64,000 nt of DNA from Burkholderia oklahomensis C6786 (GTDB lineage: Bacteria > Pseudomonadota > Gammaproteobacteria > Burkholderiales > Burkholderiaceae): positions 1,302,001-1,366,000 of the forward strand of contig NZ_CP009556.1 of NCBI RefSeq assembly GCF_000959365.1, read 5' to 3'. A model generated the notes under the pieces. That model worked only from the letters and a program-made list of their open reading frames with translations. It made no database searches and was not told the origin of the DNA. Shown one piece after another: positions 14,327-30,635 of the stretch. Position 1 is the stretch's first letter; every line of letters begins with the position of its first letter. The translations under genes were made by a program, and so were the position numbers.

Positions 14327-14422
14327 GGAAGGCATTCGTATCCGGTGGTGCGGCTGGGCTTCAAACCCAGTTGGTGCGGTCAGCCCGCGCCAGGTCGGTT
14401 CGACTCCGGCTGTCTTCCGCCA
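14327..14422 (+). tRNA. selC: tRNA-Sec (UCA anticodon)
   Basis: 96 nt including an encoded CCA. The 8-bp acceptor stem (GGAAGGCA with TGTCTTCC, one G-U pair) is typical of tRNA-Sec. The anticodon arm is CTGGG-CTTCAAA-CCCAG with anticodon TCA, followed by a long variable arm and the T loop GGTTCGACTCC. The discriminator base is G. Its 3' end is the attachment site of the adjoining island. Confidence 0.96.
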
Positions 14423-14431
14423 CAAGGTTTT
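14408..14431 (+). repeat. attL: 24-bp direct repeat at the 3' end of selC
   Basis: Starts ggctgtcttccgccacaagg and ends with four T. It covers the last 15 bases of selC and 9 bp beyond. An identical 24-bp copy is at 30612-30635 in the same orientation. A tyrosine integrase gene starts converging on it only 30 bp away, as expected for an island attachment core. Confidence 0.9.
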
Positions 14432-14461
14432 GCGGGAAATCGGATGGGCTTCGATCGGGGA

Positions 14462-15487
14462 TTATTCGTCTTGCGGTGTGGGTTTTTCTGCCCGAGCCTT
14501 GCCGCTGCCGATCTTTTTGACGGCGTCGGCCAACTTGTCGGTCACCAGATGGGCGTACCGCTTGGTCGAGGTGGTCGTCTTATGGCCCAAAACTCCGCCG
14601 ACCGTATAGAGATCGATTCCTCCGTTGATCATTTCTGACGCAGCACTATGCCGCAAGTCGTGAAACCTGACTTCGGCGTGTCCAGCTTTTGTGCGAGCCT
14701 TGATCCATGCGTCTTTCAGCCTCCATGCGGGAATGGTGAACGTCACCCGGCGCGCAATAACGGCGATTCGAGGATGAATCGGCACGATCCTCGGCCGCCC
14801 GTTTTTCGTCGTTCCGAGTGAGAGTCCATTCTTGGTCGGCGTTGCTCTCAGGATTTCGCTGAGCCGCATGCCTGAATAGAAGGTGACACGAATCGCTGCG
14901 CGGACTTGCCGATTCGGGCAAGCGTGCGCGATCTCCAACATTTCTCGGCGGCCCTTGTACACGTGTCGCTCCTCGCTGGCCGGCGGGATCACCATTTTTG
15001 CCGTTTGGTCGTAGTCGATTTTCCCGATCTTGTGCGCATACTTGATTGCCGCTCTCAGGTAGCCGAGAGTGTTGTGGACGGTTCCGTCCGACATTGGCTT
15101 CTTTGGATTTCCTTGACGGTCAACGTTCGCCCGCATGAAACCAGCGAACCGGATTGACCAGTCGTACAGATCGAGGGCGTCTTGATTTTCGTATTCCGCC
15201 GCGTACTTGGTGAGCACTTGAATCCGAATCTTTCGGTCCTTCCACGTCGAGCTTTTGTCGTTCACGTGGATGCGGACACAGTCGCCGATTGTCACAACCG
15301 CTTTTCTGGCGCCCGTCGCGGGCGCGTAGACCTCGGCATCCCACTTGCGACCTAGCTCGTCAGCTTCGCGCGCAGAAAGTCCTGCAGGGATGATTTTGGA
15401 TTTGCGAATGCGCGTACCTTCGATGACGCGCTCGAACTTCCAACGGAAGCGCCGCCGGCCATTTTTTGTAATGGATTCGATTGGCAT
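14462..15487 (-). CDS. Tyrosine recombinase (island integrase)
   Basis: 341 residues. Catalytic set visible: Arg208 (YSGMRLSE), His276-x-x-Arg279 (RFHDLRHS), His302 (GHKTTT) and nucleophile Tyr311 (KRYAHL). An N-terminal SAM-like core-binding domain covers residues ~65-175. The gene ends 30 bp from the attL core and points toward selC, the usual layout of tRNA-targeting integrases. ATG at 15487 was chosen because the preceding codons belong to the opposite-strand brnT remnant. An inverted repeat (gcaaggtat/ataccttgc) overlaps the start region. Confidence 0.92.
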   Translation of the reverse strand: MPIESITKNGRRRFRWKFERVIEGTRIRKSKIIPAGLSAREADELGRKWDAEVYAPATGARKAVVTIGDCVRIHVNDKSSTWKDRKIRIQVLTKYAAEYENQDALDLYDWSIRFAGFMRANVDRQGNPKKPMSDGTVHNTLGYLRAAIKYAHKIGKIDYDQTAKMVIPPASEERHVYKGRREMLEIAHACPNRQVRAAIRVTFYSGMRLSEILRATPTKNGLSLGTTKNGRPRIVPIHPRIAVIARRVTFTIPAWRLKDAWIKARTKAGHAEVRFHDLRHSAASEMINGGIDLYTVGGVLGHKTTTSTKRYAHLVTDKLADAVKKIGSGKARAEKPTPQDE

Positions 15488-15500
15488 GATGCAAGGTATC

Positions 15501-28351: not shown

Positions 28352-28687
28352 ATGCCAATCTACGAATTCGAGTGCACAAGCTGCGGGCCGTTCTTCGTCA
28401 TGCGCCGCATCGCGGATCGCGAAAAATCGTGCTGCTGTCCCGACTGCGGCGCAGAAGGCGGACGCGTCGTCAGCGCGCCATCACTGGCGCTGATGGGAGG
28501 CGCGGGCCGCGCCGCACACGCGACCAACGAGCGTGCCGCGCACGTACCCCGTCAGTCGGGCGACGGGTCGCCACTGCGCCATCGCGCCGGTTGCAGTTGC
28601 TGCTCGGGCGGCGCGACGAATCTCGCAGGCACGGCGTCGGATGGCCTCCAACGGCCGGCGGGACGGCCGTGGATGATTAGCCATTAA
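28352..28687 (+). CDS. fmdB: FmdB-family zinc-ribbon protein
   Basis: 111 residues. Starts MPIYEFECTSCG and has a second CPDCG, the FmdB/CxxC-CxxC regulatory zinc-ribbon pattern. The C-terminus is low complexity with a GCSCCSGG cluster. FmdB of Methylophilus was proposed as a regulator of formamidase; its function remains uncertain. AAAGGAGG precedes the ATG. It lies between fmdA and amiE. Confidence 0.85.
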   Translation: MPIYEFECTSCGPFFVMRRIADREKSCCCPDCGAEGGRVVSAPSLALMGGAGRAAHATNERAAHVPRQSGDGSPLRHRAGCSCCSGGATNLAGTASDGLQRPAGRPWMISH

Positions 28688-28764
28688 GGTGTGCCGCGCG
28701 CGAGCCGATGCCCGGAAGCAGCGGCCGTCGCGCGCGGCGTCTACGTGTTCGAGGAGGAAGCGTT

Positions 28765-29790
28765 ATGCGACATGGTGATATTTCGAGTAGCCGCGATTGT
28801 GTAGGTGTCGCGGTGGTCAACTACAAGATGCCGCGTCTGCACACGAAGGCGGAGGTGCTCGACAACGCGCGCCGTATCGCCGACATGGTGGTCGGCATGA
28901 AGCAGGGTTTGCCGGGCATGGATCTCGTGGTGTTCCCCGAGTATTCGACCCACGGCATCATGTACGACCGCCAAGAGATGTTCGATACGGCATCGGCGAT
29001 TCCCGGCGAAGAGACCGACATTTTTTCGGCGGCGTGCCGCAAGGCCAACGTATGGGGTGTGTTCTCGATCACGGGCGAGCGCCACGAGCAGCATCCGCAC
29101 AAGGTGCCGTACAACACGCTCGTGCTGATCGACAATCGCGGCGAGATCGTGCAAAAGTACCGCAAGATCATGCCGTGGACACCGATCGAAGGCTGGTATC
29201 CGGGCGACCGCACCTACGTGACGGACGGGCCGAAGGGCCTCAAGATCAGCTTGATCATCTGCGATGACGGAAATTATCCGGAGATCTGGCGCGACTGCGC
29301 GATGAATGGCGCGGAGCTCATCGTGCGCTGTCAGGGCTATATGTACCCAGCGAAGGAGCAGCAGGTGATGGTCGCGAAGGCTATGGCGTGGATGAACAAC
29401 ACATACGTGGCAGTGGCCAACGCAACGGGCTGGGACGGCGTGTATTCGTACTTCGGCCATTCGGCGATCGTGGGGTTCGACGGGCGCACGCTCGGCGAGT
29501 GCGGCGAGGAGGAAATGGGCGTGCAGTATGCGGAGCTGTCGCTCGTCATGATTCGCGACGCGCGGCGTAACATGCAGTCGCAGAACCATCTATACAAGCT
29601 GCTGCATCGCGGTTATACCGGCACCATTCATTCCGGCGATGGCGTGAATGGCGTCGCGGACTGTCCATTCGGCTTCTATCGCGACTGGATTGTGGATCCA
29701 GACGCCACGCGTCGCCGCGTCGAAGCGCTCACGCGTCCAACCCCTGGCACGCCGGAGTGTCCGATCGAAGGAATCCCGCACGAAGACTGA
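28765..29790 (+). CDS. amiE: Aliphatic amidase
   Basis: 341 residues. A nitrilase-superfamily amidase that releases ammonia from short aliphatic amides. Catalytic residues are in the exact family positions: Glu59 (VVFPEYS), Lys134 (KYRKIMPW) and Cys166 (LIICDDGNYPE). The N-terminus MRHGDISSS and the 341-residue length match AmiE (Pseudomonas 346). AmiF formamidase is related, but the N-terminus favours AmiE. GAGGAGG precedes the ATG. Last recognisable gene of the operon; with FmdA it covers formamide and C2-C3 amides. Confidence 0.93.
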   Translation: MRHGDISSSRDCVGVAVVNYKMPRLHTKAEVLDNARRIADMVVGMKQGLPGMDLVVFPEYSTHGIMYDRQEMFDTASAIPGEETDIFSAACRKANVWGVFSITGERHEQHPHKVPYNTLVLIDNRGEIVQKYRKIMPWTPIEGWYPGDRTYVTDGPKGLKISLIICDDGNYPEIWRDCAMNGAELIVRCQGYMYPAKEQQVMVAKAMAWMNNTYVAVANATGWDGVYSYFGHSAIVGFDGRTLGECGEEEMGVQYAELSLVMIRDARRNMQSQNHLYKLLHRGYTGTIHSGDGVNGVADCPFGFYRDWIVDPDATRRRVEALTRPTPGTPECPIEGIPHED

Positions 29791-30611
29791 GTAGCCGCGC
29801 CTTGGACATCGGACGTTGATTGTGCGGCAAGTGCGCCGAAAAATCGCGCGCGACTGACAGGCCATTCGGTCGGAAGGGCAGCACACCGTCTCGGAAGCTC
29901 TGATTTTCAGGACGATTGAAGGGCAATGGTGCTTGATCGCCAAGGCCAAGGAGACAACGGCCACAATCCTGTTAAAAAATCAATTCGATCCCGCGTGGGT
30001 TGGCCGCTACGTCAACGAGCATGGCATTACGTCTACCGATATATTGATCAAGGTTATGTGGACTACTTTCCTTACTGGTTCATTCGTCTGGGTATATTGC
30101 TACGCACGGAATCGTCACTCGCTCGATCGCTATCGCCGCTCGATAGTAGCGATGGCGATGCGGATCAAACAAGCTGGAGAGCAAGACACAGGAAGAAACG
30201 CTCGAATCCGACGGTCGCGCGCACAGTGGCGATCCGGCAGAAAGAACTGGCAGCGCTGGCACAAATAAATTCCACTTTCTTCGGATTCCTGGAGACTTTA
30301 CATAATTGTATCTCTCGTCGGGCAGACTGTAGCTGCCTTTGGCCGCTGCCTGCGCTATCTGCGGCAGAGCGCTCGTATGTATTGGCATTGTTCGCAGAAT
30401 CCTGGGGGCTTATAGGTGGACTCTCCAACGTCGCTGTGTCGCTGCCGACAACTTTGGGGGCGGAAATTTGCTCGGAGATCCTTTGCCGGCAATGCCTTGC
30501 GGTCGGTATTTGATTGCCGATGGAGCATTTATGGGTAGGATCGTGGGTAGGAAGCCATCTGCGATCGAGGGAGTCTTACCTGGCGGACCTTTGCGAGCGG
30601 TGGTTGGAGTT
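29791..30611. other. Island right end, mostly non-coding
   Basis: About 820 bp with AT-richer, gene-poor sequence. Overlapping frames near 29.93-30.5 kb do not resemble known families. One weak candidate is listed separately. Confidence 0.5.
29933..30268 (+). CDS. Hypothetical small protein with one membrane segment (doubtful)
   Basis: 111 residues from a TTG. The first ~60 residues look protein-like (TATILLKNQFDPAWVGRYVNEHG) and include a membrane segment (VMWTTFLTGSFVWVYCY). The C-terminal half is Arg-rich. No ribosome site and no recognised family. It overlaps another open frame on the same strand. May be a remnant. Confidence 0.25.
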   Translation: MIAKAKETTATILLKNQFDPAWVGRYVNEHGITSTDILIKVMWTTFLTGSFVWVYCYARNRHSLDRYRRSIVAMAMRIKQAGEQDTGRNARIRRSRAQWRSGRKNWQRWHK

Positions 30612-30635
30612 GGCTGTCTTCCGCCACAAGGTTTT
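30612..30635 (+). repeat. attR: distal copy of the selC 24-bp direct repeat
   Basis: Identical to 14408-14431, same orientation. Only the last 15 bases of the tRNA are present, so this copy is not a functional tRNA. A broken integrase gene lies 70 bp to its right. Confidence 0.9.

What the first reader, a model, noticed from the sequence alone, without database searches (positions are those of the whole stretch)
14408..30635. A 16-kb amide-nitrogen island inserted into the selenocysteine tRNA gene
The last 15 bases of selC plus 9 bp are repeated exactly at 30612-30635. Between the copies lie a tyrosine integrase and a full amide-utilisation module. selC is a known insertion site in enterobacteria (for example LEE), but an amide-catabolism island at selC is not something I know to be described.
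Basis: partly seen in the sequence, partly recalled or inferred. Interest (0 to 1): 0.72.

Follow-up and report, generated by a model that had tools for sequence, protein, structure and literature searches.

The report
Amide-use gene island in selC
A 16-kb block of genes for feeding on simple amides sits in the selenocysteine tRNA gene of a Burkholderia, between two copies of the integration site and beside a phage-type integrase; it is a sound but fairly ordinary example of a tRNA-linked genomic island.

Summary
Confirmed. The 24-bp sequence ending selC (14408-14431) recurs exactly at 30612-30635 and nowhere else in the window. Inside the 16,204-bp unit are a complete tyrosine integrase, an orphan brnA antitoxin gene, IS elements and a complete amide module (sensor kinase, regulator, urtABCDE, fmdA, fmdB, amiE). 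The module is 94-95% identical in DNA to copies in other Burkholderia and on a conjugative plasmid, none seen at selC, and FmdA is missing from the three nearest genomes, so it was acquired. The integrase belongs to a family found beside selC in prophage-like inserts of about 47 and 57 kb; related inserts carry brnT-brnA. The island is best read as a gutted selC prophage filled with amide genes. Whether these came with the integrase or later, and whether the island still moves, is open. Phage integration in Burkholderia selC is published; my literature listings showed no amide island there.

The parts
14327..14422 (+). selC, tRNA-Sec; its 3' end is the attachment site
   Evidence: ARAGORN, Rfam RF01852
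14408..14431 (+). attL, 24-bp direct repeat
   Evidence: exact match to 30612-30635
14462..15487 (-). int1, tyrosine integrase, about 341 aa, complete
   Evidence: PF00589; phrog_1 integrase; 79-82% aa to integrases beside selC in G013, G002, G052
15501..15877 (+). 377-bp repeat, copy 1: tail of brnT plus complete brnA (15568-15852)
   Evidence: 2 differences from 32452-32828; PF14384
15919..16254 (+). fragment of an IS3-type transposase (type by eye)
   Evidence: integrase core domains rve and rve_3
16260..17150 (+). IS4/IS5-type insertion sequence with 12-bp terminal inverted repeats (1 mismatch), transposase in two frames
   Evidence: PF13340, PF01609; inverted repeats
17385..18428 (-). LuxR-type response regulator
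   Evidence: PF00072, PF00196
18391..21828 (-). hybrid sensor histidine kinase with permease-like membrane N-terminus
   Evidence: HisKA, HATPase_c, receiver; weak cytosine-permease match
21978..23327 (+). urtA-type binding protein
   Evidence: TIGR03407 above cut-off
23356..24300 (+). urtB-type permease
   Evidence: TIGR03409 above cut-off
24329..25543 (+). urtC-type permease
   Evidence: TIGR03408 above cut-off
25547..26290 (+). urtD-type ATPase
   Evidence: TIGR03411 above cut-off
26325..27014 (+). urtE-type ATPase
   Evidence: TIGR03410 above cut-off
27076..28314 (+). fmdA, formamidase
   Evidence: NF045496, 770.5 bits vs cut-off 500; 2wkn, 827 bits
28352..28687 (+). fmdB, zinc-ribbon protein
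   Evidence: PF09723, 43.2 bits vs cut-off 34.4
28765..29790 (+). amiE, aliphatic amidase
   Evidence: NF009802, 716.8 bits vs cut-off 427; 2plq
30461..30611 (+). conserved right terminus with two TGGGTAGGA repeats 12 bp apart, perhaps integrase arm sites
   Evidence: matches in 16 of 65 Burkholderia genomes (at most 8 candidates scored per genome); 6 loci aligned; repeats
30612..30635 (+). attR, 24-bp direct repeat
30672..31000 (-). int2, decayed C-terminal end of an older integrase (outside the island)
   Evidence: homologous sequence follows selC directly in G029 and G047
32452..32828 (+). 377-bp repeat, copy 2, in the older remnant (outside the island)

Best explanation
[quoted passage not shown] Its integrase comes from a family of selC-specific prophage-like elements; most phage genes are gone and only int1 and the phage-borne brnA remain, while an amide-utilisation block (17268-29792) related to that of cepacia-complex Burkholderia fills the interior, with IS elements on its left. 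It landed between selC and an older, decayed integrase, so selC here carries a tandem array. Function (inferred): the permease-like sensor kinase detects amides and, through the LuxR-type regulator, switches on the divergent urtABCDE-fmdAB-amiE operon; the transporter imports short amides; FmdA turns formamide into ammonia and formate, and AmiE turns acetamide and similar amides into ammonia and acids. Shown: edges, gene content, foreign relatives. Inferred: order of events, regulation, substrates, mobility. Whether the amide block came with int1 or was added later is left open (first rival).
For: Edges: relatives with selC joined directly to the right flank (shorter matches in 3 of 80 loci); exact repeat. 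Integrase family: int1 79-82% identical to integrases beside selC in G013 (B. anthina LMG 20980), G002 (B. cenocepacia NCTC13227) and G052; a second, partial selC 3' end lies 57.2 kb further in G013 and 46.8 kb in G002; a CI-like repressor, an O-like replication protein and a DnaB-like helicase follow the integrase in G052; complete brnT-brnA lies inside the G013 and G052 inserts. Right terminus in 16 of 65 genomes, downstream of selC on the same strand in 7 of the 8 genomes where both are on one contig. Foreign cargo: 94-95% nt to six other copies over about 12.4 kb, while SelB is 77% aa identical in three of those genomes but 91-96% in G029, G033 and G047, which have no FmdA match at E <= 1e-50. 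Enzymes. Amide rather than urea transport beside fmdA and amiE was argued in PMC3098086 (passages) and suggested in PMC13209695 (passages).
Against: No phage structural gene was sought in the relatives' inserts, and G052's contig ends before a right edge is met. The G013 and G002 inserts have a different right end from the window's, so int1 and the right terminus may not come from one element. The 377-bp brnA repeat, 2 differences from one outside the island, shows later rearrangement. At fourfold sites the amide genes and the fdh-sel genes overlap against B. cenocepacia CMCC(B)23006 (78.7-93.4% vs 72.0-83.6%), so that measure alone does not prove transfer. No excisionase was seen, but small ORFs were not scanned. 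Of the three nearest relatives one (G033) has another arrangement at selC.
Confidence: 0.75

Rival explanations
1. The amide block was inserted by IS activity or homologous recombination into a decayed prophage already resident at selC; the 16-kb stretch never travelled as one unit.
For: IS elements lie between int1 and the block; the block occurs without int1 elsewhere, at one shared chromosomal site in four genomes and on plasmid pBVIE02 between IS-type transposases and a Tn3-type transposase; none of the 3 genomes with near-complete int1 has an FmdA match at E <= 1e-50; the brnA repeat points to rearrangement in place.
Against: The right terminus and the amide block both have relatives in other Burkholderia and no match in G029, G033 and G047, as if they came together; the repeats are still perfect.
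Confidence: 0.4
2. A functional mobile island that carries the amide genes as regular cargo and still excises.
For: int1 reading frame complete with the expected arginine, HxxR and tyrosine motifs (sequence; motif roles recalled); perfect 24-bp repeats; possible arm sites.
Against: No excisionase seen among the ORFs scanned; the 377-bp repeat begins 14 bp upstream of int1's likely start codon, so its own upstream region is lost; no genome of 65 has both near-complete int1 and FmdA.
Confidence: 0.25
3. The repeat is a chance or residual match and the amide genes are ancestral to this locus.
For: None found.
Against: and no FmdA match in the three nearest relatives.
Confidence: 0.02

Closest known systems
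tRNA-mediated genomic islands of B. pseudomallei (Tuanyok 2008, PMC2612704, passages read)
   Same: integration at a tRNA 3' end with a short direct repeat at the far edge, different contents at one site
   Different: its Table 3 of tRNA-linked islands, as shown, names no tRNA-Sec; cargo here is an amide module
Phage PhiE067 of B. thailandensis (PMC7266877, abstract and passages read)
   Same: [quoted passage not shown] 19-bp attachment site
   Different: a complete myovirus; its record (KT803877) is not in the phage collection, so its integrase was not compared with int1
selC prophage-like inserts in B. anthina LMG 20980 (G013) and B. cenocepacia NCTC13227 (G002)
   Same: integrase 79-80% identical, same site, brnT-brnA in the B. 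anthina insert
   Different: 57 and 47 kb, no FmdA match at E <= 1e-50 in those genomes, different right end
urtABCDE-fmdA-(fmdB)-amiE clusters (Bradyrhizobium japonicum in PMC3098086; Pseudomonas veronii Yu15 in PMC13209695; B. vietnamiensis pBVIE02)
   Same: same enzymes and transporter
   Different: on pBVIE02 not at selC and no int1 nearby in the stretch seen; the sites in the other two were not examined here

Membership tests
tRNA-linked genomic island | duplicated tRNA 3' end at both edges | tested here: met
tRNA-linked genomic island | integrase gene next to the tRNA | tested here: met
tRNA-linked genomic island | relatives with the site lacking the insert | tested here: met
   G029 and G047 of the 3 nearest genomes; G033 has another insert
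tRNA-linked genomic island | foreign composition or relatives | tested here: met
   GC 58-66% per kb in 15-30 kb vs 63-75% in 1-14 kb, overlapping; closest relatives of the cargo in other Burkholderia
tRNA-linked genomic island | excision and transfer | not testable with these tools
   needs reads or bench work
temperate prophage | phage replication or structural genes | tested here: not met
   apart from int1 and brnA, no phage gene among the island ORFs scanned and no other DNA match over 250 nt to the selC stretches of G013, G002, G052 and G021
integrative conjugative element | relaxase and mating-pair genes | tested here: not met
   none among the island ORFs scanned; small ORFs were not scanned
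urt-fmd-ami amide cluster | FmdA, AmiE and UrtABCDE above curated cut-offs | tested here: met
urt-fmd-ami amide cluster | growth on amides | not testable with these tools
   no assay
P4-type selC islands such as LEE | P4-like integrase | not tested
   int1 was not compared with P4 integrase

The most novel reading that the evidence does not exclude
selC is a genus-wide landing site in Burkholderia where prophages with one integrase family are repeatedly gutted and reloaded with metabolic cargo, so that a phage integration system becomes a vehicle for nutrient-use genes; here it has delivered a formate-making formamidase next to the selenoprotein formate dehydrogenase operon that adjoins selC.
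Probability: 0.3. Interest if true: 0.5.

Novelty: new member of a known kind. Interest (0 to 1): 0.35.

Why it matters
It shows selC acting as an accretion site in Burkholderia, with at least two integrase generations in one array, and gives a clear case of a metabolic module found on a chromosome, on a plasmid and at a tRNA site. It also looks like an intermediate between prophage and island. None of this overturns current views of genomic islands.

Tried and rejected
The window's own genome is not held. Viral contigs gave no relative of int1. In phage records the best-ranked int1 relative is 39.1% identical and all 217 matches are under 60%; for int2 the best-ranked is 42.9% and all 117 are under 60%. 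I hoped the 820 bp left of attR would match the right ends of the selC prophages; it did not, but its last 160 bp turned out to be a shared right terminus. The integrase that goes with that terminus was not found: int1 and int2, the only queries used, matched nothing in the stretches fetched from G058, G045, G031, G032, G022, G011 and G013, and only a 32-residue int1 piece in G044. The terminus had no match in the plasmid collection. The GH3 gene at 36.4 kb was considered as the old right flank: it lies 26 kb downstream of selC in G029 and about 0.65 kb downstream in Paraburkholderia terricola, but hundreds of kb away in other Burkholderia where both are on one contig, for example G034, G040 and G011, so it is only tentative. 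Solved-structure and Pfam matches for the sensor's membrane part were sought without success. Structure prediction was not used.
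Full report
Observation. The selenocysteine tRNA gene lies at 14327-14422. Its last 15 bases plus 9 more recur exactly at 30612-30635. A scan with up to 3 mismatches finds only these two places in the window, and 0 of 100 shuffles gave two matches. The spacing makes a unit of 16,204 bp.

Boundary test. Of the three nearest, G033, G047 and G029 (selB-selC DNA 91, 91 and 89% identical), two, G029 and G047, have selC running straight into sequence homologous to window 30612-30993 (82.0 and 81.8%). Joining the window's own flanks in a script gives an alignment that passes through the junction in register. Among the 80 SelB loci, three more (L046, L054, L061) have a shorter match, about 75% identical, to window 30672-30988 at the corresponding distance after selC. 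G033 differs: about 3.85 kb follow selC, then a site with 3 mismatches to the repeat, an int1 remnant, about 1.7 kb and a brnT-brnA pair.

What is inside. From left to right: int1, a complete tyrosine integrase; a 377-bp piece with the tail of brnT and a complete brnA; an IS3-type fragment; an IS5-type element with 12-bp terminal repeats; the amide block; some 670 bp without recognised genes; and about 150 bp of a conserved right terminus. The amide block holds a LuxR-type response regulator, a hybrid sensor kinase, urtABCDE, fmdA, fmdB and amiE. UrtA to UrtE, FmdA and AmiE all exceed NCBIfam's curated cut-offs. FmdA matches the solved formamidase 2wkn over nearly its whole length, and AmiE the aliphatic amidase 2plq, with the stretches that carry the Glu, Lys and Cys catalytic residues conserved (residue roles recalled).

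The integrase. All 65 genomes have some tyrosine recombinase match, but in the rows listed only 8 have pieces of about 65% identity or more (its list is cut): nearly complete genes in G013 (B. anthina LMG 20980), G002 (B. cenocepacia NCTC13227) and G052, and pieces in G009, G046, G021, G033 and G044. The three nearly complete ones lie beside selC, as do the pieces in G009 and G021; that of G033 lies about 4 kb off, that of G044 about 108 kb, and that of G046 on another contig. In G013 and G002 a second, partial selC 3' end lies 57.2 and 46.8 kb further. In G052 the integrase is followed by a CI-like repressor, an O-like replication protein and a DnaB-like helicase; I did not look for structural genes. 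A complete brnT-brnA pair lies inside the G013 and G052 inserts, and PHROGs puts brnA's family among phage accessory genes. So int1 plus brnA in the window is what one expects of a selC prophage that has lost nearly everything else. A protein search found one cluster of 9 members that holds the window's own int1; the next best is 85%, from B. stagnalis.

The right end. Window 30461-30620 matches 16 of 65 genomes (one search lists 18 with any match; 2, G041 and G002, match only another part; at most 8 candidates were scored per genome, so 16 is a lower bound). In 6 loci aligned, the core CTTCCGCCA follows exactly in 4, with one change in 1, and not in 1. In the window the stretch has two TGGGTAGGA repeats 12 bp apart, which look like integrase arm sites (inference). 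In 8 genomes this sequence and selC are on one contig; in 7 of them it lies downstream of selC on the same strand, 12 to 146 kb away, and in 1 (G023) it does not. This supports 30611 as a true element end. It also counts against a simple origin, because the G013 and G002 inserts have another right end, and I could not find the integrase that goes with it.

The cargo is foreign and occurs by itself. The block 17268-29792 is 94.3% identical to B. cenocepacia CMCC(B)23006 and to plasmid pBVIE02 of B. vietnamiensis G4, and 94 to 95% to G011, G004, G058 and G038; that these named species belong to the cepacia complex is recalled. G011, G058, G038 and CMCC(B)23006 share flanks, so they have it at one chromosomal place; G004, pBVIE02 and the window have other flanks. 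On pBVIE02, typed as conjugative, it lies between IS-type transposases and a Tn3-type transposase. FmdA (E <= 1e-50) is found in 9 of 65 genomes, not in G029, G033 or G047, and not in the three with near-complete int1. In 2 of the 9 it shares a contig with selC, 0.76 and 2.1 Mb away; in 7 it is on another contig, two of them under 21 kb, so for those two nearness to selC is not strictly excluded. None of the 80 SelB loci, which reach up to 10 kb beyond SelB, shows the block. SelB is 77% identical to the proteins of CMCC(B)23006, G011 and G004 but 91-96% to those of G029, G033 and G047, whereas the amide proteins are 84-99% identical to those of the former three. At fourfold-degenerate sites against CMCC(B)23006 the ten amide genes span 78.7-93.4% and five fdh-sel genes 72.0-83.6%: the trend agrees, the ranges overlap.

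The array. Right of the island lies int2, the decayed end of another integrase, then a copy of the 377-bp brnA piece (2 differences), an avidin-family gene, an IS110-type fragment and other remnants up to about 36 kb. G033 shares most of the brnA-to-35.8-kb part, and G029 has an int2 end followed by a scrap of int1. The simplest reading is that int1-type and other elements have entered selC repeatedly, and that the two brnA copies were made alike by later recombination. Both copies start at the same GGTATACC, which I cannot explain fully.

How it works. The transporter families are those called urea transporters, but a published analysis argued that such a set next to fmdA and amiE carries other amides (PMC3098086, passages). 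[quoted passage not shown] The related fmd cluster of M. [quoted passage not shown] The sensor's membrane part resembles cytosine permeases only weakly (1.3e-4, far below cut-off; no meaningful Pfam or solved-structure match), though one source names several of its homologues purine-cytosine permease-like. Such sensors are common: 119 of the 120 listed homologues cover at least 98% of it at 57% identity or more. The proposed circuit, amide sensed, regulator active, operon on, amides split to ammonia and acids, is inference.

Literature. Searches for Burkholderia with tRNA-Sec or selC islands and for amidase genes with genomic islands showed no amide island at selC; I saw the listings (0, 20 of 23, 8 of 8, 10 of 19, 20 of 53 and 3 of 3 papers) and passages of six papers. 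They did give phage PhiE067, which integrates in selC of B. thailandensis with a 19-bp site (PMC7266877, abstract and passages), so the site itself is known in this genus. The library lacks most subscription journals.

Verdict. The finding is real and well bounded. It is a new member of a known kind, tRNA-linked genomic islands, with a prophage-type integrase and an amide module known from elsewhere. Interest is moderate to low.

Noticed in passing
39000-64000: A type III secretion gene cluster (PrgH, secretin, FHIPEP, ATPase and translocon-like families) lies right of the selC array; 81% DNA identity to a B. savannae plasmid over 66% of the stretch. Described only.
   Followed up: partly
5741-5799: A SECIS element in what similar annotated DNA calls a formate dehydrogenase operon, next to the selB-selC region; FmdA in the island would make formate, so island and neighbour could be metabolically linked (speculation).
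   Followed up: no
15501-15877 and 32452-32828: A 377-bp repeat with 2 differences holding an orphan brnA; both copies begin at GGTATACC with the toxin gene cut short at the same point.
   Followed up: partly
33156-33614: An avidin-family gene (PF01382, 1.5e-28) in the older remnant; G033 has similar DNA in the same order (75.9%).
   Followed up: no
30461-30611: A right-terminus sequence shared by 16 of 65 Burkholderia genomes, whose integrase is unknown.
   Followed up: partly
L185 and L189: In G032 and G044 an ORF containing MAGRQLHRLSALRVAK, which by eye resembles P4-type integrases, follows selC; not scanned.
   Followed up: no
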